Positions 2 to 37,163 of a stretch of 64,000 nt of DNA are shown piece after piece. Under the pieces are notes generated by a model, which searched no databases, was not told the DNA's origin, and worked only from the letters and a program-made list of their open reading frames with translations. The position numbers were made by a program, and so were the translations under genes. Source of the DNA: Motilimonas eburnea (GTDB lineage: Bacteria > Pseudomonadota > Gammaproteobacteria > Enterobacterales > CBDFNC01); NCBI RefSeq assembly GCF_021295345.1, contig NZ_JAIMJB010000009.1, forward strand, positions 62,001 to 126,000. The letters are read 5' to 3'. The stretch's first letter is position 1, and each line of letters begins with the position of its first letter.

Positions 2-901
2 GTTTGGTTTCCGACTTTAGATAATGCCCCCAAAATATGGATTGGTGAAAATCTGGCTTTTGTGGGCACCGAAGTGGTTGAAAATGCATCTCTAGATGTG
101 GAGCAATCTCCACTCGTTTTGTTATCTCATGGCTATGGTGGTAATTGGCGTAACTTGAACTGGCTTGCTACTGCGCTAGCCCAGCAAGGCATGATAGTCG
201 CGGCCGTGGATCATCCTGGGACAACCAGCCTTGATAGATCGCCCTTATCCGCATCAAAATGGTGGCTTCGCGCCGCAGATATTTCGGCCTTACTTGATCT
301 ACTGCTCGCCGACGAAAAATGGAGAATAGCTATAAATCCAAAGGATATTTCTGTAATAGGTCACTCATTAGGTGGCTGGACGGCAATGTTATTGGTCGGC
401 GCGAAGTTTGATCGAGATACATTTCAAGTCCAATGCAAGCACTACGCCAATCCTCGCACCTGTGGCTTAGCAACAGAGCTCGGCTTAGATAAGCGCCAAC
501 CCAATGAGCCTGCTGATGTTGTATTGCTGGATAAACGAATCAAAAAAGCCATTACTTTGGATTTAGGGTTAGCAAGAAGCCTATCGATTCAAAGCCTTAA
601 TCAAGTTACCACGCCTACCTTAATTCTAGCAGCAGGGGTGGATATCGGCGATCTACCACAAGCCTTTGAGTCTGGGTACTTAGCTGAGCATATTGCGCTA
701 GCGCAACGCCGCTACAAGGTTTATGAGCAAGCGGCCCATTTTAGCTTTATACAACTGTGTAAGCCCCAAGCTGGTCAGATTTTGGAACAAGAGCAAGTAG
801 GTGATGGCATCATCTGTGTTGATGCTAAAGGTGCACACCGAGAACAGCTACATACTCGATTTTTTAAGGACATAACCGACTTCCTTAAACAGACGCTTTA
901 G
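2..901 (+). CDS. Alpha/beta hydrolase, 5' end cut by window edge
   Basis: The reading frame is open to the first bases of the window, so the N-terminus is missing; a GTG at 62 is in frame but is probably internal. The visible part has an alpha/beta-hydrolase layout: an oxyanion-type L-S-H-G-Y-G-G stretch near 121-141, the nucleophile elbow G-H-S-L-G-G at about 359-376 (G-x-S-x-G), and a candidate catalytic His in Q-A-A-H-F-S near 728-745. It resembles the dienelactone hydrolase / PAF-acetylhydrolase-like predicted hydrolases. The substrate is unknown. It converges on the AraC-type gene and overlaps that gene's restored 3' end by about 17 bp. I am confident of the fold and not of the substrate. 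Confidence 0.82.
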   Translation, partial: VWFPTLDNAPKIWIGENLAFVGTEVVENASLDVEQSPLVLLSHGYGGNWRNLNWLATALAQQGMIVAAVDHPGTTSLDRSPLSASKWWLRAADISALLDLLLADEKWRIAINPKDISVIGHSLGGWTAMLLVGAKFDRDTFQVQCKHYANPRTCGLATELGLDKRQPNEPADVVLLDKRIKKAITLDLGLARSLSIQSLNQVTTPTLILAAGVDIGDLPQAFESGYLAEHIALAQRRYKVYEQAAHFSFIQLCKPQAGQILEQEQVGDGIICVDAKGAHREQLHTRFFKDITDFLKQTL

Positions 902-29234: not shown

Positions 29235-29936
29235 CTAAGCGTGGGGTGGTAAATCGAACACAATCGCTTCTACCGCCTCATCACAACTTGCAAACACAAG
29301 CTGTTCAATGCGCTGCACCGCGCCACCGTCGCCGGGCTTAAGTTCAATATCATTTAACTTGAGCTTGCCCTTAATTAACTGCACATAAGCGATACGCTGT
29401 TTGCCCAAAATCATTTCGGCTGTTTCATTGGGTTGCAGTAATAAATGCAGTAGGCGCGCATCCTGCTTAATCTTCAAGGTGCCATCTCGGCCATCGGGGG
29501 TGATCACCTCATGCAAACCATTACGCATGCCAAACGCCTTTTGCTGATATCCCGGCTTACCGCCAAATTGGTTCGGCTCAATCCAAATTTGTAATAAGGT
29601 AAGCTCTTGATCTTGGCGCGCGTTAAACTCGCTGTGGCGAATACCACTGCCCGCCGACATCAACTGAAATTCACCCGCTGGCAATTCAGTGACATTACCG
29701 ACACTGTCTTTATGGGCAATCACGCCCGAGGTGACATAGGTAATGATCTCCATATCGCGATGACCATGGGTATCAAAGCCCGCCCCCGGCGCAATGATGT
29801 CATCATTAATCACCCTCAGCGCCGACACCCCCATAAAACGCGGATCATAATAATTAGCAAAGGAAAAAGAATAATGGGTATTAAGCCAACCATAATGGCC
29901 ACGGCCGCGCTCTTCGGCTTTTCTCACGGTGATCAT
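29235..29936 (-). CDS. Pirin-family protein (YhhW-like quercetin dioxygenase type)
   Basis: 233 residues, bicupin fold. The metal ligands are at the positions known for E. coli YhhW: His57 and His59 in T-H-G-H-R, His101 and Glu103 in H-S-E-F. The ATG at 29936 (GGAG 7 bp upstream, protein start M-I-T-V-R-K-A) is preferred over an in-frame ATG at 29963. Such proteins can show quercetinase activity; the natural substrate is uncertain. It converges on the nfr operon with only 6 bp between stops. Confidence 0.93.
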   Translation of the reverse strand: MITVRKAEERGRGHYGWLNTHYSFSFANYYDPRFMGVSALRVINDDIIAPGAGFDTHGHRDMEIITYVTSGVIAHKDSVGNVTELPAGEFQLMSAGSGIRHSEFNARQDQELTLLQIWIEPNQFGGKPGYQQKAFGMRNGLHEVITPDGRDGTLKIKQDARLLHLLLQPNETAEMILGKQRIAYVQLIKGKLKLNDIELKPGDGGAVQRIEQLVFASCDEAVEAIVFDLPPHA

Positions 29937-30291
29937 AAACAACTCCATCGCCCCAAAGGGCATGCAAATAAAGTGATGGGCCTAATATAGCGAGTAATTA
30001 AACGAATGAATAACGCCAAATATCTAATGTATTGTTCTAAAAAATAGAATCATCATCCCGCTCCAACTCCCCTGTTGGCGCCACTGCTTGTGGGAGGCGA
30101 GCTCGCTCGGCGAAAAACATCCTTAGAGTTGATTAGGCCCGGCTTTAGGGTGGCATTATTCAGGCTTAGTTCTTTAAATAAATGGTGATTAGAACTAGCT
30201 AGAGTCATGTCTCGTTATAGACTGATTCGCATAGAACATAGATGTAAGATAATGCAAAATAACGACTTTCAGTGCACAGATAAGCCACGCC
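29937..30291. other. Intergenic region at the left edge of the accessory island
   Basis: About 355 bp without a gene. It holds one REP-like palindrome (30089-30115) and presumably promoters for the leftward pirin gene and the rightward methyltransferase. TTCGCA (about 30225) followed by TAAGAT (about 30247) is a possible promoter for the latter. Base composition shifts to more A/T from here to about 35.8 kb. Confidence 0.5.
30089..30115 (+). repeat. REP-like palindrome, left side of the island
   Basis: The copy reads TGTGGGAGGCGAGCTCGCTC then GGCGAA and contains the self-complementary GAGCTC core. It is the near-inverse of the copy at 35857-35882 (about four mismatches), so the two bracket the island in opposite orientation. 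Confidence 0.75.
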
Positions 30292-30882
30292 ATGAAGACG
30301 ACTAACCAATATTACAATGACAATGCACAGAGCTTTTTCACTACAACTGTGAATGTAGATGTTCAGAAACTTTACGACCGTTTTCTTCCTCGAGTCGATA
30401 ATCACGGAAAAATATTGGATGCAGGGTGTGGTTCCGGAAGAGATAGTAAAAACTTTATTAGTTTGGGCTACAAAGTCGTGGCATTTGATGCCAGTGAATC
30501 TCTTGTTGCAATGGCATCAGAATACATTGGACAACAGGTCATCCAAGCAACATTTAGTACTTTTAAATCAGCACCAGCCGACTTCGATGCTATTTGGGCA
30601 TGCGCCTCACTACTTCACGTTGCTAAAAGAGACCTTAAGAAAACATTTTTGCATCTTAGTGACCATCTCAAAACAAATGGCATTTTCTATTGCTCATTTA
30701 AATACGGTAATACTGAGCAAGTGCGTAATGGTCGCTTCTTTGTTGATATGAATGAACAAAATCTTAAAGATACTCTCTTATCTACTCAACTTGAAATTGA
30801 AGAAACTTGGATAAGCTCGGATGCAAGGCCTGGACGAGAAGCCGAGCAATGGTTAAATGCCATCTTGGTCAAAAAAGATTAA
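30292..30882 (+). CDS. Class I SAM-dependent methyltransferase
   Basis: 196 residues. Motif I reads I-L-D-A-G-C-G-S-G-R-D (about 37-47), followed by V-V-A-F-D-A-S acidic loop and D-A-I-W-A-C-A-S-L-L-H (motif IV region), typical of small Rossmann methyltransferases of the TehB/UbiE-like group. No DNA-methylase target-recognition domain or N/D-P-P-Y motif is visible, so DNA is not an obvious substrate. It lacks a clear Shine-Dalgarno. It ends 13 bp before the giant helicase gene and is almost certainly in its operon. Its substrate is unknown. Confidence 0.85.
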   Translation: MKTTNQYYNDNAQSFFTTTVNVDVQKLYDRFLPRVDNHGKILDAGCGSGRDSKNFISLGYKVVAFDASESLVAMASEYIGQQVIQATFSTFKSAPADFDAIWACASLLHVAKRDLKKTFLHLSDHLKTNGIFYCSFKYGNTEQVRNGRFFVDMNEQNLKDTLLSTQLEIEETWISSDARPGREAEQWLNAILVKKD

Positions 30883-30895
30883 GGAAAAGACACGG

Positions 30896-33787
30896 ATGCC
30901 AACACAATCGCTGACCATTCGAGATAACTTGCTGACCACGGGTGGTGACGACCCTCTGTTACCGCAACTGGTTCATGCCATCAATCATGCAACCGAAATA
31001 GAGATAGCAGTTTCTTTTATTCAGCCGTCAGGGCTTGATCTATTATTGCCAAGTATTCATGAGGCCATTGAACGAAAAGCAAATCACAATCAGCCACTCA
31101 AGCTCAGAATATTAACGTCTGACTATCTTCATATTACTCACCCTATCGCGCTGCGCTCTTTGGTCGAGCTAGAAGGTGATGAGGTGATTGTGAAAATTTT
31201 TGAAGCAAACAATCACAGTTTTCATCTCAAGTCATACATTTTTGTGCGCACTGATGAGACTCATTCTTTCTTCAATGGAACCGCTTTTGTTGGCTCGAAC
31301 AACATCAGTAAATCTGCCCTTACTGACGCCCATGAATGGAGCCTTCGATTAGATTACCGCCAGTCTGATGAGCCTTCGCAAGCGAAACAGTTCAACCATA
31401 TTCGTGAACAGTTTAACAAGCTATTTCATCATCCATTGGCAATAGCACTGACTGATGAGTGGATTGAAGACTATATCAAAAGAAGAACACCACCCAAGCT
31501 CTCAGCGGTGGGAGACGCTTCGCTGTTAGATGATGATGATTACACGCCAAATTCAGCACAAATAGAAGCACTACAAGCGCTTGATGACACACGCGATAAA
31601 GGTAACGTGCGTGGATTGGTTGTGATGGGGACGGGCATGGGGAAAACTTGGCTGTCCGCTTTTGATGCCAAGCAAATTCAAGCTAAACGTGTCCTATTTG
31701 TTGCCCACAGAGAAGAAATATTAAATCAAGCATTGAATACGTTTGCCAAGCTATGGCCAGAAAAATCAGCAGGGCTTTATCATGGTAAGCGAAAAGAAAA
31801 ACAAAAAAAGATGTTGTTTGCATCAGTACAGAGCTTGGGAAAAGAAGAGCATCTCAAGCACTTCGCTGCCGACTACTTTGACTACATCGTTGTGGATGAG
31901 TTTCACCATGCAAGCGCAAAAACATACCTCAATATTCTTAATCACTTTGAGCCAAAGTTTCTACTCGGGCTAACGGCGACGCCTGAGCGTACCGACCAAG
32001 CCAACATTCTCTCACTTTGCCACGATAACTTGGTATTCGAGCGCAACCTAGTACATGGTATTGATGGTGGCATTTTGGTGCCATTTCACTATTACGGTAT
32101 TTGGGATGATTCAGTTGATTATCAAGCGATCCCTTGGCGCAATGGCAAGTTTGACCCTGCGGCGCTAGATGCTCAATTTGCTACCAAACAAAGAGCAAAG
32201 CATATTTTTAAGCATTGGGAAGCGAAGCAACAATCTCGTACGCTTGCTTTCTGCATTTCCCAAAAGCACGCTGATTTTATGGCAGTGCAATTTAACATGG
32301 CATATGCCGAACAAGGTTATAAAGCGCTGTCTGTTCACAGCCATTCATCCGTTCGGCGTAATGAAGCATTAACTATGCTCGACAAAGGTGAAATACAAGT
32401 TCTGTTCTCGGTAGATTTATTTAACGAGGGGACGGACTTACCATCGATCGATACTGTGCTCATGTTGCGTCCAACAGAATCAAATATTATCTTTATTCAG
32501 CAGTTGGGCCGAGGGCTGCGTCGACACATCAACAAGACACACTTAGTTGTTTTAGACTTCATCGGTAATCACCGTTCATTCTTGAATAAGCAGGAAGTGC
32601 TTGGCATAACTACATCAAGTGATCTATCAAAATACGATGGCATTAAAGCTACAAATCCCAAGTTAGGCAATGGGTGTTTCGTCAATCTCGAGCCACAAAT
32701 CGTCGATTTTTGGCAAGCGCTTGTTAAACAATTACGACACACTGCTAAGGAAGAGTTTGAAAATCTGACTAATCATCTTGGGCACAGACCAAGAGCGGTG
32801 GAGTTTTATCGTGCAGGTTATGATTTCAATAAGGTCAACAAACAACATGGCAGTTGGCTAGAGCTAGTCGCCACAATGAGTAATGATGGAAACTTGCAAC
32901 GAATTGTCGAAGACCACAAATCGTTTTTATTAAATGCGGTTCAGAAAATGAGCATGACCAAATGTTTCAAAGCCATTCTGCTTGAAGCCTACCTCGAACT
33001 TGATGGTTTCAATGTTCCGCCGACGATGGAAATGCTTTCAGCTAAGAGTTGGCAGGTTTTATCGAGATACCCTCGGTTAAAAGAGTCGGATCTCCCGCCA
33101 AAAATTCGACAATTAGACGCTAACTCACCAGCTTGGTTAAAGTACTGGCTAATTAATCCAATTAACGCTTTGGTTGGTGGAAATACAAAGCAAAAAAATG
33201 CTTGGTTTAATGATGCGGCTGGAAAATTGACGGCTAACTTCACTGTTTCCTCTTCGCTTTTACCAGACTTTAATCACTTTGTTAAAGAGTTGGTTGATTT
33301 ACAGCTAGCAAAATATGCAGATAGAGAGCAAAAACAAGCCGAACCTGTGACAACGGTAAAGGCTGCTAACGATGGCATCATGCTGCCTTATTATCCAAAC
33401 TTAAAAATCGCCTGCGGTCATTTTAAGACTGGTACAAGTGATGATGTAGAAATGATGCCTGTAGAAATAAGTAACCTAAGTCAAGATAAACACTTTTTAG
33501 CAAGAGCTTCTGGTCATTCAATGAACGGTGGAAAGTCACCAATATTTGACGGTGACTTGCTATTACTTGAATTTGTGACACCGACATCCGCGGGATCAAT
33601 CACAGGAAAAACGATAGCGTTAGAAATACAAGATGACGTTGGTGACAGTCAGTACCTGCTTCGTGTTGTGCAAAAAGATAATCAGGGTCACTACTACCTA
33701 AAAGCTAACAATCCTGATTATGAGTTGATGCCAGCAAATGAATCGATGAGAACTTTTGCGAGATTGGTGAAAGTTTTACGCGAGTAA
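30896..33787 (+). CDS. PLD nuclease-SF2 helicase-DUF3427 protein with C-terminal UmuD/LexA-like S24 domain
   Basis: 963 residues. A phospholipase D-like nuclease domain (about 1-190; H-L-K near 110, then G-S-N-N-I-S) is followed by a DEAD/DEAH superfamily 2 helicase: M-G-T-G-M-G-K-T (about 240-248), V-V-D-E-F-H-H (about 331), G-L-T-A-T-P-E-R (about 360) and Q-Q-L-G-R-G-L-R-R (about 535). A DUF3427-type region comes next. Residues about 830-963 resemble UmuD/LexA: a Cys840-Gly841 pair where UmuD is cut, the nucleophile Ser875 in G-H-S-M-N-G-G, and D-G-D-L-L-L-L-E. Arg923 stands where the catalytic lysine is expected. AAGGA lies 10 bp upstream of the ATG at 30896. A role in defence or repair is inference. 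Confidence 0.88.
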   Translation: MPTQSLTIRDNLLTTGGDDPLLPQLVHAINHATEIEIAVSFIQPSGLDLLLPSIHEAIERKANHNQPLKLRILTSDYLHITHPIALRSLVELEGDEVIVKIFEANNHSFHLKSYIFVRTDETHSFFNGTAFVGSNNISKSALTDAHEWSLRLDYRQSDEPSQAKQFNHIREQFNKLFHHPLAIALTDEWIEDYIKRRTPPKLSAVGDASLLDDDDYTPNSAQIEALQALDDTRDKGNVRGLVVMGTGMGKTWLSAFDAKQIQAKRVLFVAHREEILNQALNTFAKLWPEKSAGLYHGKRKEKQKKMLFASVQSLGKEEHLKHFAADYFDYIVVDEFHHASAKTYLNILNHFEPKFLLGLTATPERTDQANILSLCHDNLVFERNLVHGIDGGILVPFHYYGIWDDSVDYQAIPWRNGKFDPAALDAQFATKQRAKHIFKHWEAKQQSRTLAFCISQKHADFMAVQFNMAYAEQGYKALSVHSHSSVRRNEALTMLDKGEIQVLFSVDLFNEGTDLPSIDTVLMLRPTESNIIFIQQLGRGLRRHINKTHLVVLDFIGNHRSFLNKQEVLGITTSSDLSKYDGIKATNPKLGNGCFVNLEPQIVDFWQALVKQLRHTAKEEFENLTNHLGHRPRAVEFYRAGYDFNKVNKQHGSWLELVATMSNDGNLQRIVEDHKSFLLNAVQKMSMTKCFKAILLEAYLELDGFNVPPTMEMLSAKSWQVLSRYPRLKESDLPPKIRQLDANSPAWLKYWLINPINALVGGNTKQKNAWFNDAAGKLTANFTVSSSLLPDFNHFVKELVDLQLAKYADREQKQAEPVTTVKAANDGIMLPYYPNLKIACGHFKTGTSDDVEMMPVEISNLSQDKHFLARASGHSMNGGKSPIFDGDLLLLEFVTPTSAGSITGKTIALEIQDDVGDSQYLLRVVQKDNQGHYYLKANNPDYELMPANESMRTFARLVKVLRE

Positions 33788-33899
33788 AAAACTAAAAGAC
33801 AATAATATCAATCACTAAAGAATTGCGTGCCTTTTTGAGCATTAGATCACTGCGATCTTGCCTCCAAACGGATCTTTTGCGCGATGAAGACTCAAGATG

Positions 33900-34526
33900 T
33901 CAGGCCAACCGATTATGCTTTTTTCTCAAGTTTTGAATATGTAGCTTATCTGTCGCTTCATTGGGTGGCATACGATAAAAACTAAGGCGTCCTAAGCAAA
34001 ACTGCACTCGATTAAGGCTGATCGTCATTTCCTGACGAGAGCTAAGATATTTGGATATTTCATCCGCATAAATAACTCCGGCAGGCATGGGCGTTTTAAA
34101 TTTGGCATCGCCAGAGAAGACAACGAGTGAATGTATATCTTGAGCAGGTAAAAAATCAAAAAGTGCAGATATAGCTTTGATATGTGCATAATTTTGTCTT
34201 ATTGGATTCTGAAAGCGAGTTTTTCTTCGATACAAAACCTGCGTCCACCTTGCTGACAGTGGGTCGCCAAATATCCAGCCACTATAATCTTTAGTTTCGA
34301 TGACATAAATGCCGTATTGTGAAATCAATAGGTGGTCAATTTGCGTTGTTGAGCCATCATTGCAGGGTAAGGTTATGTTGTTAAGAAGTATTTCTTTTTG
34401 TGGATCGAGCTGCGCTTGGATTAATTCAGCGACCTTCCTTTCTCCTGCATTGGTTCGATAAAGTCGACTGCGTTTACCGAGTATGTAAGCGCAAATAATG
34501 GCAAGTAAAGTGATGATGACGGACAT
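33900..34526 (-). CDS. NERD-domain protein with N-terminal membrane anchor
   Basis: 208 residues. An N-terminal hydrophobic helix (about 2-15) precedes a NERD (nuclease-related) domain: G-E-R-K-V-A-E-L, Q-I-D-H-L-L-I-S, Y-V-I-E-T-K-D-Y-S-G-W-I and F-Q-N-P-I-R-Q-N. The Asp and the E-x-K pair are those expected of a PD-(D/E)xK-like nuclease site. AAGGGG lies 9 bp upstream of the ATG. It follows the larger NERD gene by 25 bp and converges on the helicase gene across a 112-bp gap in which I see no clear terminator. The biological role is unknown. Confidence 0.87.
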   Translation of the reverse strand: MSVIITLLAIICAYILGKRSRLYRTNAGERKVAELIQAQLDPQKEILLNNITLPCNDGSTTQIDHLLISQYGIYVIETKDYSGWIFGDPLSARWTQVLYRRKTRFQNPIRQNYAHIKAISALFDFLPAQDIHSLVVFSGDAKFKTPMPAGVIYADEISKYLSSRQEMTISLNRVQFCLGRLSFYRMPPNEATDKLHIQNLRKKHNRLA

Positions 34527-34551
34527 ATATTAAACCCCTTTAGATGAGCGA

Positions 34552-35691
34552 CTACGAACTTGCCACTTCACTAGTCTTAGCCTGTTCATACACGAGCATA
34601 CTCGTTTCGCACTCTCCGCAGTTAAGGGTATAGCTAGCACGTTTTTTTGTTATTTTTGGTCTTTTATTGCCACACGTTGGGCAAGGAATGCGCATACTGG
34701 TGTTGGTTTCACAACTTGCACAGATAACGTAATAGCCGTGTTTACCATAGGCTGCAGTGAGCTGTGTATGGCCGCTACATTTTTTGCATTTGATTAAGGG
34801 GCTTTGGCTAGGGGATTGGGTGGAGGTAACATCATTCTCGTTTACTGTGGTATGAAATGACGAGGCCAAATCGTTCTTGCTCTGCACCGCCTTTTCAGTC
34901 TCACATTGTGCAGGCGATACTGATTCAGATTTTTCTGATCTAGCAAGGTCTACATTGTAGTTTTCAGGCGTTTGATCGGATAAAGCTAACAGGGAATTGC
35001 TGGCGAGCTTGTCTGTATCACCTTCGGTCTTTTCTTCAACTTGGCTGTTGCCTTGATGCTGCTCGAGTAGGAACGTTTCAATGGATTGTATTTCATCTTC
35101 ATTGAATGCGGGCCGCGTCGTGAATGCTTTTCGCAATATGCTAGGTATATCCATCATCTCGATAACTTTGTCGGCAATAAACTCACTTTTGACGACCATT
35201 TTACTGATATCGCTTGGCATATCGTCGCGTTCAATGATGGCATTACTTGAAATGGCGCATAGGTTATCCCAGCTACGCTTGCCAAAGTTTTGTGGCACTT
35301 TGCCCATTATTATTTTTGGCAGGATTTCTTCTCTGTGTTTAAACAGCATCGCGCGAAGCAATTGTTGCTGTAATTCAACTTGTTTGATTGGGGAGCGCAT
35401 GCCACTCCAGTTGCCTTGATAACTGCGCTGCCATTCACCAAGTTGATTTACTTTGACATGGCCTGTGATGCTTTTCGATTCGATTAATATAAAACCGTAG
35501 GAGTAGAGGATTAAATGGTCAATTTGAGCCGTTTCACCGTCATGGACAAATTTTAAGTCATTAAATACTCGAATATCTGGCTTGTCGGCAAACGCACGTT
35601 TAAGAAAAAATGCGACGTCTTGCTCTTGGCGGATGCCCGCTTGAAGCTTGGAATTAGCGGCAGATTTATTGTCGATATCTTTACAAATCAA
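34552..35691 (-). CDS. NERD-domain protein with C-terminal zinc ribbons
   Basis: About 379 residues from a TTG at 35691 that has GAGG 7 bp upstream. In-frame ATGs at 35817 and 35799 lack a Shine-Dalgarno and add a low-complexity stretch. The NERD domain (about 15-190) shows Q-I-D-H-L-I-L-Y and L-I-E-S-K-S-I, the acidic and lysine residues of a PD-(D/E)xK-like site. A polar, probably disordered linker follows. The C-terminus carries two or more C-x-x-C ribbons (C-K-K-C, C-A-S-C, C-P-T-C, C-G-E-C), likely zinc-binding and nucleic-acid-facing. It is the first gene of a leftward two-gene operon. Function unknown. Confidence 0.82.
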   Translation of the reverse strand: MICKDIDNKSAANSKLQAGIRQEQDVAFFLKRAFADKPDIRVFNDLKFVHDGETAQIDHLILYSYGFILIESKSITGHVKVNQLGEWQRSYQGNWSGMRSPIKQVELQQQLLRAMLFKHREEILPKIIMGKVPQNFGKRSWDNLCAISSNAIIERDDMPSDISKMVVKSEFIADKVIEMMDIPSILRKAFTTRPAFNEDEIQSIETFLLEQHQGNSQVEEKTEGDTDKLASNSLLALSDQTPENYNVDLARSEKSESVSPAQCETEKAVQSKNDLASSFHTTVNENDVTSTQSPSQSPLIKCKKCSGHTQLTAAYGKHGYYVICASCETNTSMRIPCPTCGNKRPKITKKRASYTLNCGECETSMLVYEQAKTSEVASS

Positions 35692-35905: not shown

Positions 35906-37012
35906 TTAGCGGATCAGGCGGTAGATTTTGCCGTTGTCGGTGGCAAATAGGATGTCGCCGGCTGGGGTGATTTCAAGATCGCGGATGCGCTCGTTGAGGT
36001 TTTCAAGTAGGCGTTGTTCGTCGATGGCTTGGTTTTGCTCGTTTAAGGTGATGACGTTGAGGTGCATGAGCTTTAATGCGCCGGCGATGAGTTTGCCATT
36101 GAGCTCGGGGAATTTGTCACCGCGATAAAGCACTAGGCTGCCGGGGGCGATGGAGGGCACATAAACTTTAACCGGCGATTCGATGCCGGGTTTTTCTTTG
36201 GCTTCGCCCACATCAAAAGGGCCCCAGTATTCTTGGCCGTGTGAGGTGATGGGCCAGCCGTAGTTGGCGCCGGCTTGGATCAAGTTGATTTCGTCGCCGC
36301 CGCGGGGGCCGTGCTCGATGGACCAAAGCTGTTTGGTTTGGCTGTCGTACCAGATGCCTTGCGGGTTGCGATGGCCATAGCTGTAGATTTCATCGCGTAC
36401 CTTGGGGTTATTGATAAAGGGATTGGTTTTGGGAATGCTGCCGTCGGGATTGAGGCGCAATATGCTGCCCGCGTGGGTTTGGGTGTTTTGGCCGTTTTCA
36501 CGCTCGCCGCGATCGCCTAGGGTGAAATACACACTGCTTTGGTCAAAGGTGATGCGCGAGCCAAAGTGGCGGGTGGTGTTTGAGCGTGAGTCGGTGACAA
36601 GCAAATCTTGCCATTGGCTAAATTTACCGTCTTGATAGCGAGCCATGGCCAGTGTGGTGGCACTTTGGCCTTGTTGGTTTTTGCTGTAGGTAAAGTAATA
36701 CGTGCCCTTAGTAAAAGGCGATTTGGCGATGTCGAGTAAGCCGCCTTGGCCTTTGGCAACCACGTTTATTTCGGCCAGTGGCGTTTGTTTACCTGTGGTG
36801 AGATCGAGGCGTTTAATGATGCCTTCACGCTCGGTAACCAGTAAGGTTTGCTCATCAACATAGGCGATTGCCCAAGGTAGGGTGAAACCACTGGCGATTT
36901 TTTCCGCTTGCCATGCAAAAGCAGAAGGGATGACAAAGCCAGTGAAGATAAGGGTGGTGAGTTTAAGGTGTGATCCTTTTGCCTTGGGTTGGTTGAAAAG
37001 GTGAGCAAACAT
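35906..37012 (-). CDS. PQQ-dependent sugar dehydrogenase (aldose sugar dehydrogenase, YliI type)
   Basis: 368 residues. A signal peptide (cleavage near A-F-A) is followed by a six-bladed beta-propeller of the glucose/sorbosone dehydrogenase family: V-T-E-R-E-G, G-G-L-L-D-I-A, G-D-R-G-E-R, Y-G-H-R-N-P-Q-G and E-H-G-P-R-G-G-D-E-I-N. It should act in the periplasm, oxidising soluble aldoses with PQQ. The open frame runs back to 37159 through a short tandem repeat, but the ATG at 37012 has AAGGAG 6 bp upstream and opens the signal peptide. No PQQ synthesis genes are in view. Confidence 0.93.
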   Translation of the reverse strand: MFAHLFNQPKAKGSHLKLTTLIFTGFVIPSAFAWQAEKIASGFTLPWAIAYVDEQTLLVTEREGIIKRLDLTTGKQTPLAEINVVAKGQGGLLDIAKSPFTKGTYYFTYSKNQQGQSATTLAMARYQDGKFSQWQDLLVTDSRSNTTRHFGSRITFDQSSVYFTLGDRGERENGQNTQTHAGSILRLNPDGSIPKTNPFINNPKVRDEIYSYGHRNPQGIWYDSQTKQLWSIEHGPRGGDEINLIQAGANYGWPITSHGQEYWGPFDVGEAKEKPGIESPVKVYVPSIAPGSLVLYRGDKFPELNGKLIAGALKLMHLNVITLNEQNQAIDEQRLLENLNERIRDLEITPAGDILFATDNGKIYRLIR

Positions 37013-37112
37013 GTTGGCTCCTTTTGTTTGGTTGTGGTTTTTAACATAACAGATATTGGTGAAGTTTGGATTCTTTGTGTTTGTTTCACTGCAGAACAAA
37101 ATCGCTGCATGA

Positions 37113-37163
37113 CTGCAGCTCCCACAGGTCTGCAGCTCCCACAGGTCTGCAGTTCCCACAAGA
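37113..37163. repeat. Three 17-bp tandem repeats
   Basis: CTGCAGCTCCCACAGGT occurs exactly at 37113-37129 and 37130-37146, with a third copy carrying a few changes at 37147-37163 and a decayed fourth (ATGCAGCTCTCA) after it. The CTCCCACA part recalls the REP head, so these may be degenerated REP half-sites. Confidence 0.8.

What the first reader, a model, noticed from the sequence alone, without database searches (positions are those of the whole stretch)
30292..35691. Candidate undescribed defence or DNA-damage island: methyltransferase, PLD-helicase-DUF3427-S24 protein and two NERD nuclease-like proteins
Four nucleic-acid-facing proteins occupy 5.4 kb of AT-richer DNA inserted between ordinary genes. 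Two convergent operons end tail to tail. One carries a methyltransferase plus a nuclease-helicase with a self-cleavage-type sensor domain; the other carries two PD-(D/E)xK-like NERD proteins, one membrane-anchored and one with zinc ribbons. The combination does not match a named system I know and has the parts for sensing, processing and cutting nucleic acid.
Basis: partly seen in the sequence, partly recalled or inferred. Interest (0 to 1): 0.8.

Follow-up and report, generated by a model that had tools for sequence, protein, structure and literature searches.

The report
Methyltransferase-paired nuclease-helicase in defence hotspot
A bacterial immune island carries a DNA-cutting motor enzyme paired with a small methyltransferase, and related bacteria pair the same kind of methyltransferase with several unrelated DNA-cutting enzymes, which points to a shared but unexplained helper in bacterial immunity.

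Summary
The four genes are real but form two separable units, not one system. Unit A (30292-33787 +): a 196-aa class I SAM methyltransferase and, 13 bp on, a SauUSI-type PLD nuclease/SF2 translocase with an S24 (LexA/UmuD-like) domain where SauUSI has its SRA reader; the claimed DUF3427 is not detected. Unit B (35691-33900 -): a NERD2-NERD1 nuclease pair. Two sibling species carry Dnd (plus the NERD pair) or CRISPR-Cas I-F at the same site: a defence hotspot. This methyltransferase family adjoins or is fused to 33 of 37 helicases of this clade (35 with two divergent methyltransferases) and 0 of 27 others. In 394 genomes, 48 of 54 family members adjoin a nuclease or helicase (31 PLD-helicase, 13 HNH, 4 other SF2), and partners swapped repeatedly, once in place between two plasmids. 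S24 keeps the Cys-Gly site and Ser, but Arg replaces the catalytic Lys in 32 of 32, predicting no self-cleavage. NERD genes recur near PLD-helicases (11 of 43 strong NERD genes within ~1.1 kb; 0.06 expected). Best reading: a type IV-like restriction nuclease with a methyltransferase helper that is not a classical protective DNA methyltransferase. All functions are inferred.

The parts
30292..30882 (+). Class I SAM-dependent methyltransferase, 196 aa; partner of the helicase; no DNA-methyltransferase (N/D/S)PP(Y/F/W) or PC(Q/N) motif found
   Evidence: PF13649 4.8e-14; family alignment; motif scan; next to or fused to clade-III helicases
30896..33787 (+). SauUSI-type PLD nuclease / SF2 translocase with C-terminal S24 domain, 963 aa (alternative start 30857, 976 aa)
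   Evidence: PLDc_2, ResIII, Helicase_C, Peptidase_S24; SauUSI 7clg 3e-85; Foldseek top hit 7clg 1.3e-39
31223..31303 (+). PLD catalytic stretch H110-x-K112 ... S134-x-N136
   Evidence: invariant in 29 of 29 aligned sequences, window included
31541..32524 (+). SF2 ATPase core (ResIII to Helicase_C)
   Evidence: Pfam ranges
33404..33757 (+). S24 (LexA/UmuD-like) domain: Cys840-Gly841 cleavage-type site (33413-33418), Ser875 (33518-33520), Arg923 in place of the catalytic Lys (33662-33664)
   Evidence: PF00717 1.3e-10; alignment with own-genome LexA and UmuD; Arg in 32 of 32 (31, L201)
33900..34526 (-). NERD1: N-terminal membrane segment (read from sequence) + NERD nuclease domain, 208 aa
   Evidence: PF08378 2.2e-33; QIDH...ETK; counterpart at the same site in G001 (65%)
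34552..35691 (-). NERD2: NERD nuclease domain + Cys-rich C-terminus, 379 aa (longer ORF to 35817); upstream gene of the NERD2-NERD1 pair
   Evidence: PF08378 3.1e-18; QIDH...ESK; counterpart in G001 (54%)
29235..29963 (-). Left flank of the hotspot: pirin
   Evidence: PF02678; conserved flank in G001 and G003
35906..37159 (-). Right flank of the hotspot: glucose/sorbosone dehydrogenase
   Evidence: PF07995; conserved flank in G001 and G003

Best explanation
A restriction-type anti-phage / anti-mobile-DNA island made of two units in a chromosomal defence hotspot. Unit A: the PLD-helicase binds foreign DNA, its SF2 motor translocates with ATP, and the PLD nuclease dimer cuts, as shown for SauUSI (inferred here from homology and intact active sites). 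The place of SauUSI's SRA reader is taken by a LexA/UmuD-like domain predicted not to cleave; I infer that this domain, possibly docking to RecA filaments or to a partner, licenses the motor. The small methyltransferase works with the nuclease as a shared helper: the same family is paired with PLD-helicases, other S24-helicases and HNH nucleases, so it most likely methylates something common to these reactions (the nuclease itself, a nucleic-acid end, or a nucleotide) rather than a sequence-specific protective site. Unit B: a NERD2-NERD1 nuclease pair, an add-on that accompanies different defence systems (here unit A, in a sibling species Dnd). Shown: gene content, pairing, fusions, partner swaps, hotspot. 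Inferred: every biochemical step.
For: Hotspot: pirin...GSDH encloses DndB, C, D, F, G, H and the NERD pair in G001, and Cas1f/Cas8f/Cas5f/Cas7f/Cas6f in G003. SauUSI kinship. Pairing: methyltransferase adjacent or fused in 35 of 37 clade-III rows (33 by the family search, two divergent ones by Pfam) against 0 of 27 others in the family search, two changes on the tree; three fusions of methyltransferase, PLD-helicase, S24 and DUF3427: L056, L090, L201. Control: among 55 immediate neighbours of the 29 rows without it, Pfam's listed families (25 of 71 shown) include one methyltransferase, a C-5 DNA methylase by L105. Shared helper: 48 of 54 family members adjoin a nuclease or helicase; partner label changes at least 7 (PLD) and 6 (HNH) times on well-supported branches; in-place swap between two Pseudoalteromonas plasmids. 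S24 subfamily: 23 of 23 domains over 90 bits lie in methyltransferase-paired loci. Sporadic presence: PLD-helicases of any type in 18 of 369 class genomes at E<=1e-60; 82% identity to V. mytili against 63% to a genus-mate. NERD: 11 of 43 within ~1.1 kb of a PLD-helicase against 0.063 expected.
Against: No function was measured. The predicted model has pLDDT 75 and TM to SauUSI of only 0.32/0.36, so the domain arrangement is not confirmed. Three relatives (L006, L088, L093) lack S24, so it is not essential. Six of 54 methyltransferases stand alone, four of them one genus paralogue; five of nine plasmid neighbourhoods opened show no nuclease directly beside it. Two clade-III helicases (L009, L010) show no methyltransferase. 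The hotspot argument rests on three genomes; G002's site was not resolved.
Confidence: 0.66

Rival explanations
1. A classical restriction-modification pair: the methyltransferase methylates host DNA at the nuclease's target and protects it.
For: Strict pairing, fusion and partner swapping with nucleases are what a modification enzyme would show.
Against: 196 aa, no target-recognition domain found by Pfam and no DNA-methyltransferase motif of the kinds scanned; best NCBIfam and PDB matches are small-molecule-type or uncharacterised methyltransferases. In G002 the methyltransferase gene is split by an IS256-like ORF (named by eye) while the helicase stays open, which should be lethal if it were the only protection (unless the helicase is silent). 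Unrelated nucleases are served by closely similar methyltransferases.
Confidence: 0.12
2. The methyltransferase acts on nucleotides or on a small molecule: SauUSI-type enzymes carry a nucleotide-handling helper (NUDIX on the SauUSI side, HIT fused to a homologue from another class, methyltransferase here) that acts on phage-made modified nucleotides or on cleavage products.
For: NUDIX genes directly upstream of the SauUSI-side helicases L099 and L101 and an NTP pyrophosphohydrolase beside the S. aureus SauUSI-like gene; HIT-PLD-helicase-DUF3427 fusion in L202; small-molecule-type methyltransferase matches.
Against: Three NUDIX cases and one HIT case only, and only 2 of the 55 neighbours scanned are NUDIX; no substrate evidence; the methyltransferase is also paired with HNH nucleases.
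Confidence: 0.2
3. A DNA-damage (SOS-linked) repair module: a RadD-like helicase-nuclease switched by S24 cleavage.
For: S24 domain with UmuD-like Cys-Gly site and Ser; RadD is the best structural match of the motor by VIA-align, Z 28.0.
Against: Sporadic, hotspot-borne distribution; best sequence and Foldseek match is SauUSI; Arg replaces the catalytic Lys in 32 of 32, and LexA K156R is described as uncleavable (PMC5760743, one passage read); relatives without S24 exist.
Confidence: 0.08
4. One four-gene defence system, with NERDs as obligate co-effectors.
For: NERD genes lie within ~1.2 kb in 12 of 64 PLD-helicase rows (window included), six of them at 44-148 bp on the same strand; 10 changes on the tree.
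Against: 52 of 64 rows have no NERD that near (some loci are cut by contig ends); the NERD pair stands with Dnd and without helicase in G001; V. mytili shows none; no second fetched locus with all four genes.
Confidence: 0.08

Closest known systems
SauUSI (type IV, 5mC/5hmC-dependent, PLD nuclease - SF2 ATPase - coupler - SRA; PDB 7clg)
   Same: PLD nuclease with HxK...SxN, SF2 motor and part of the coupler align (window 25-653); best Foldseek match; PADLOC mREase_IV
   Different: C-terminal SRA/DUF3427 reader not detected, S24 domain instead; methyltransferase partner in this clade, whereas the one SauUSI-like S. aureus record seen has an NTP pyrophosphohydrolase beside it
LexA / UmuD S24 self-cleaving domains
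   Same: (A/C)-Gly cleavage-type site and Ser in register with the own-genome LexA and UmuD
   Different: Catalytic Lys replaced by Arg in 32 of 32; fused to a nuclease-helicase
DNA phosphorothioation-associated putative methyltransferase (TIGR04096) and dnd loci
   Same: A SAM methyltransferase of unknown role beside restriction genes; in L168 the window's methyltransferase family and an HNH gene sit next to TIGR04096 and DndB genes, and in L179 next to a DndB gene
   Different: Different, much larger protein (~680 aa); no dnd gene among the window's four
MADS (mad2 methyltransferase, NERD-containing MAD6)
   Same: Domain-level hits of the methyltransferase to mad2 and of NERD1 to MAD6
   Different: No other MADS component seen; partial matches, MAD6 at 34 bits against a cut-off of 460

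Membership tests
SauUSI-type type IV restriction enzyme | N-terminal PLD nuclease with HxK/SxN active site | tested here: met
   (29 of 29 aligned sequences)
SauUSI-type type IV restriction enzyme | SF2 helicase-like ATPase fused behind the PLD domain | tested here: met
SauUSI-type type IV restriction enzyme | C-terminal SRA-type / DUF3427 target-recognition domain | tested here: not met
   no DUF3427 hit at E<=0.01 in the window protein; present in relatives L056, L060, L090, L201
SauUSI-type type IV restriction enzyme | Cleaves 5mC/5hmC DNA with ATP | not testable with these tools
   needs biochemistry
Type II restriction-modification system | Cognate DNA methyltransferase with target recognition and catalytic motif IV | tested here: not met
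   motif scan of a 196-aa protein; family matches are not DNA methyltransferases except perhaps the domain-level mad2 hit
S24 self-cleaving peptidase (LexA/UmuD type) | Ser-Lys dyad and (A/C)-Gly cleavage site | tested here: not met
   site and Ser present, Lys replaced by Arg in 32 of 32
NERD nuclease-like proteins | NERD domain with PD-(D/E)xK-type D...ExK | tested here: met
Defence island / hotspot | Same flanks hold different defence systems in close relatives | tested here: met
   (3 genomes compared, the window's included; the fourth not resolved)

The most novel reading that the evidence does not exclude
A general immune helper: one dedicated SAM-methyltransferase family serves several mechanistically unrelated restriction nucleases (PLD-helicase, S24-helicase, HNH) as an interchangeable, sometimes fused partner, together with a LexA-like domain frozen by a Lys-to-Arg change that has become a sensor or docking module. 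This would define a modular class of methyltransferase-licensed nucleases distinct from restriction-modification.
Probability: 0.45. Interest if true: 0.8.

Novelty: new variant of a known kind. Interest (0 to 1): 0.62.

Why it matters
SauUSI is described as active as a single polypeptide (passage of PMC3874153). In this clade of SauUSI-like enzymes nearly every member has a methyltransferase beside it, and that methyltransferase changes partners among unrelated nucleases. This asks directly what is being methylated and why a nuclease needs it, which simple cloning can test. The S24 domain with an invariant Arg at the Lys position is a ready test of whether LexA-like domains can act as sensors without cleavage.

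Tried and rejected
DUF3427 in the window protein: not found. E. coli genomes: no megablast match. Phages: no tblastn match for the S24 domain; helicase and methyltransferase were not sought there. Solved structures: no match for the S24 piece alone. A simple empty site: not found, because the sibling sites are filled with other systems. HNH partners as phosphorothioate readers in general: of five HNH partners scanned against NCBIfam (L166, L168, L170, L174, L179) only L166 shows a PT-restriction match; the HNH model (pLDDT 72) gave no hit at E<=0.001, so this stays open. Four-gene unity: rejected. Ten paper searches were made; those aimed at such a pairing listed nothing whose title, abstract or opened passages describe it; most listed papers were not opened, and the library lacks most subscription papers.

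Mended on checking: a regular expression miscounted the Arg column (it caught the 'DYLLLE' stretch); corrected, with L201 read by eye. The first methyltransferase tree held L188 labelled HNH without proof; Pfam shows only a methyltransferase there. Rebuilt without it, and again without the long branches L163, L211 and L060, the forced changes are 7 (PLD) and 6 (HNH) both times (5 and 5 before). The PLD pattern missed 23 of 65 rows, all outside clade III; their spacing was not examined.

Full report
OBSERVATION. The four ORFs exist as described. Pfam gives a class I methyltransferase, PLDc_2 + ResIII + Helicase_C + Peptidase_S24, and two NERD proteins. DUF3427 was not found at E<=0.01. The region has 0.419 G+C against 0.469 in the rest of the window. 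PADLOC's type IV restriction models match the helicase strongly (6.3e-91 and 1.6e-85), and the SauUSI structure 7clg matches residues 25-653 at 3e-85. A model of the 963-aa protein (pLDDT 75.3) has SauUSI as top Foldseek hit (1.3e-39), but TM is only 0.32/0.36 with rmsd 26, so single domains match while their arrangement is unsure. By VIA-align the motor matches RadD best (Z 28.0, 336 residues, rmsd 4.9; 7clg_B Z 21.4, 579 residues, rmsd 22.9).

A DEFENCE HOTSPOT. The flanks, pirin and glucose/sorbosone dehydrogenase, lie on one contig in genus-mates G001 and G003, some 25-27 kb apart. In G001 the space holds proteins whose best PADLOC models are DndB, DndC, DndF, DndG, DndH, PbeC with DndD next, and SspA with DndA next, a DndE-like ORF (by eye), and then counterparts of both NERDs (65% and 54%), without the helicase. 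In G003 it holds Cas1f, Cas8f, Cas5f, Cas7f and Cas6f and a methyltransferase-HNH fusion, without NERDs or helicase. So the three resolved sites of the genus, the window's included, carry different immune loci. The fourth genome, G002, carries a 63% helicase elsewhere; its own flank site was not resolved.

TWO UNITS, NOT ONE. The methyltransferase-helicase pair moves without NERDs: V. mytili has it at 82% helicase identity beside other genes. The NERD pair stands without the helicase in G001. Yet NERD genes are strongly drawn to PLD-helicases. Of 43 NERD genes above 40 bits in 55 genomes chosen because they hold a PLD-helicase (the window's genome not among them), 11 lie within about 1.1 kb of one; random placement predicts 0.063 (a rough model with rounded genome sizes). 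Within the fetched windows (up to 20 kb) my own NERD profile found 12 NERD genes besides the window's, and 11 of them lie that close, the twelfth at 5.9 kb, which argues against mere sharing of defence islands. On the helicase tree 12 of 64 rows (window included) have a NERD within 1.2 kb, needing 10 changes, so the association arose or was lost many times.

THE METHYLTRANSFERASE. The core tree of 65 rows has three groups: the SauUSI side (7 rows), a ~1050-aa gammaproteobacterial clade (21), and the window's clade III (37). Rows with a missing N-terminus or broken core (such as L008, L050, L061, L072) were left out. This methyltransferase family lies within 100 bp or is fused in 33 of 37 clade-III rows; two more (L057 convergent, L059 upstream) have divergent methyltransferases recognised by Pfam, which makes 35. 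Among the 27 labelled other rows the family search found 0; two changes on the tree (the SauUSI plasmid row carried no label). Because the other rows had not been given the same Pfam look, I scanned 55 immediate neighbours of the 29 rows without it: in the 25 families shown of 71 there is one methyltransferase, a C-5 DNA methylase beside L105; a single weaker one could be hidden below the list. One of the 33 (L055, in G002) is split by an IS256-like ORF. Fusions exist in L056, L090 and L201. Searching 394 genomes of the order with the methyltransferase gave 54 genes at E<=1e-33, the two pieces in G002 counted once; weaker matches were left out. By coordinates and fetched contexts, 31 adjoin or are fused to a PLD-helicase (one only to its N-terminal piece at a contig end, L182), 13 an HNH protein, 4 another SF2 helicase (one a remnant), and 6 stand alone, of which four are one genus paralogue and one (L185) lies beside Cas3 and Cse1 genes. 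HNH identity was tested by Pfam for 5 of the 13 and by homology to these for the other 8. On methyltransferase trees of 62 and 59 rows, well-supported branches force at least seven changes of the PLD label and six of the HNH label. In two Pseudoalteromonas plasmids (L007, L206) the ABC-F gene upstream (88% DNA identity), the methyltransferase (78%) and short stretches of DNA downstream are shared, while the gene between is a PLD-helicase in one and an HNH nuclease in the other. I opened nine plasmid neighbourhoods out of the 30 listed, that of L206 among them: four have an annotated HNH gene directly beside the methyltransferase, the other five do not, although one of these has a phosphorothioation-associated methyltransferase gene nearby. 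The protein has no DNA-methyltransferase motif of the kinds scanned; its best solved relative is the uncharacterised 3e23 (1.4e-36).

THE S24 DOMAIN. Aligned with LexA and UmuD of the same genome, the domain keeps the Gly-preceded-by-Cys cleavage-type site and the Ser, but Arg stands where the catalytic Lys should be, in 32 of 32 domains of this subfamily examined (30 of the set, plus L172 and L201; broken copies such as L092 and L167 not counted). A paper that I read in one passage calls LexA K156R uncleavable (PMC5760743). More distant SauUSI-side proteins L099 and L101 have S24 after DUF3427 and keep the Lys. In 365 genomes of the order the subfamily gave 26 matches; the 23 above 90 bits lie in loci where a nuclease gene is paired with the methyltransferase, and three weak ones are short fragments. 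L167 and L172 carry the same S24 on a different helicase, also paired with the methyltransferase. Relatives L006, L088 and L093 end before S24, so it is dispensable in some.

MECHANISM. From SauUSI (abstract and passages of PMC7913695): target recognition activates the ATPase, the enzyme translocates, and the authors propose that DNA is shredded by the PLD nucleases. The window enzyme keeps the nuclease and motor residues, so I infer the same engine; the sensor is unknown. The methyltransferase is most simply a helper whose substrate is common to several nucleases. On the SauUSI side the neighbour can be a NUDIX hydrolase (L099, L101; L149), which keeps a nucleotide substrate in play. It is unlikely to be the sole guard of host DNA: G002 has a broken methyltransferase and an open helicase, though silence of that helicase is not excluded. 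Toxicity, phage specificity and substrate are untested.

LITERATURE. SauUSI and DUF3427: passages of PMC7913695, PMC3874153, PMC7159879 and PMC12707154. NERD in BREX and TALON: passages of PMC12839542 and PMC12458937. The searches named under Tried and rejected listed no account of this pairing in the held library, which lacks most subscription papers.

VERDICT. A real, well-placed defence island; a new variant of a SauUSI-type nuclease; and a partner-swapping methyltransferase that I consider the most interesting part.

Noticed in passing
L055:11525-12754 (G002): An IS256-like transposase ORF (named by eye) splits the methyltransferase while the adjacent helicase stays open: a natural methyltransferase knockout.
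   Followed up: partly
L099:3797-7186 and L101:7017-10466: PLD-helicase-DUF3427-S24 proteins whose S24 keeps Ser and Lys and an Ala-Gly site: possibly truly self-cleaving restriction enzymes; a NUDIX gene lies directly upstream of each.
   Followed up: partly
L202:8367-11945 (G929): HIT hydrolase domain fused in front of a PLD-helicase-DUF3427 protein, where relatives have the methyltransferase.
   Followed up: no
L149:2517-2909: An NTP pyrophosphohydrolase gene lies beside the SauUSI-like gene on a Staphylococcus aureus plasmid record.
   Followed up: no
L105:8452-12539: A C-5 cytosine DNA methylase gene is convergent with, and overlaps by 4 bp, a ~1050-aa-clade PLD-helicase gene.
   Followed up: no
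L082:7480-14140 and L083:7406-14033: Methyltransferase, S24-type helicase and a second PLD-helicase in tandem; DUF3427 confirmed in the L082 copy.
   Followed up: no
L164:6365-7030 (own genome), L183, L186, L187: A stand-alone paralogue of the methyltransferase, present in all four genus genomes, with no nuclease seen beside it.
   Followed up: no
L163:3172-4902 (G003): A methyltransferase-HNH fusion (576 aa) at the same hotspot as the window's island.
   Followed up: partly
L208:5001-10582: Methyltransferase and HNH genes directly before cas1f and a cas3-type gene on an Acinetobacter lwoffii plasmid.
   Followed up: no
L007:9377-18211: The methyltransferase-helicase pair lies just before genes annotated as an ABC-three-component system on a Pseudoalteromonas plasmid.
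   Followed up: no
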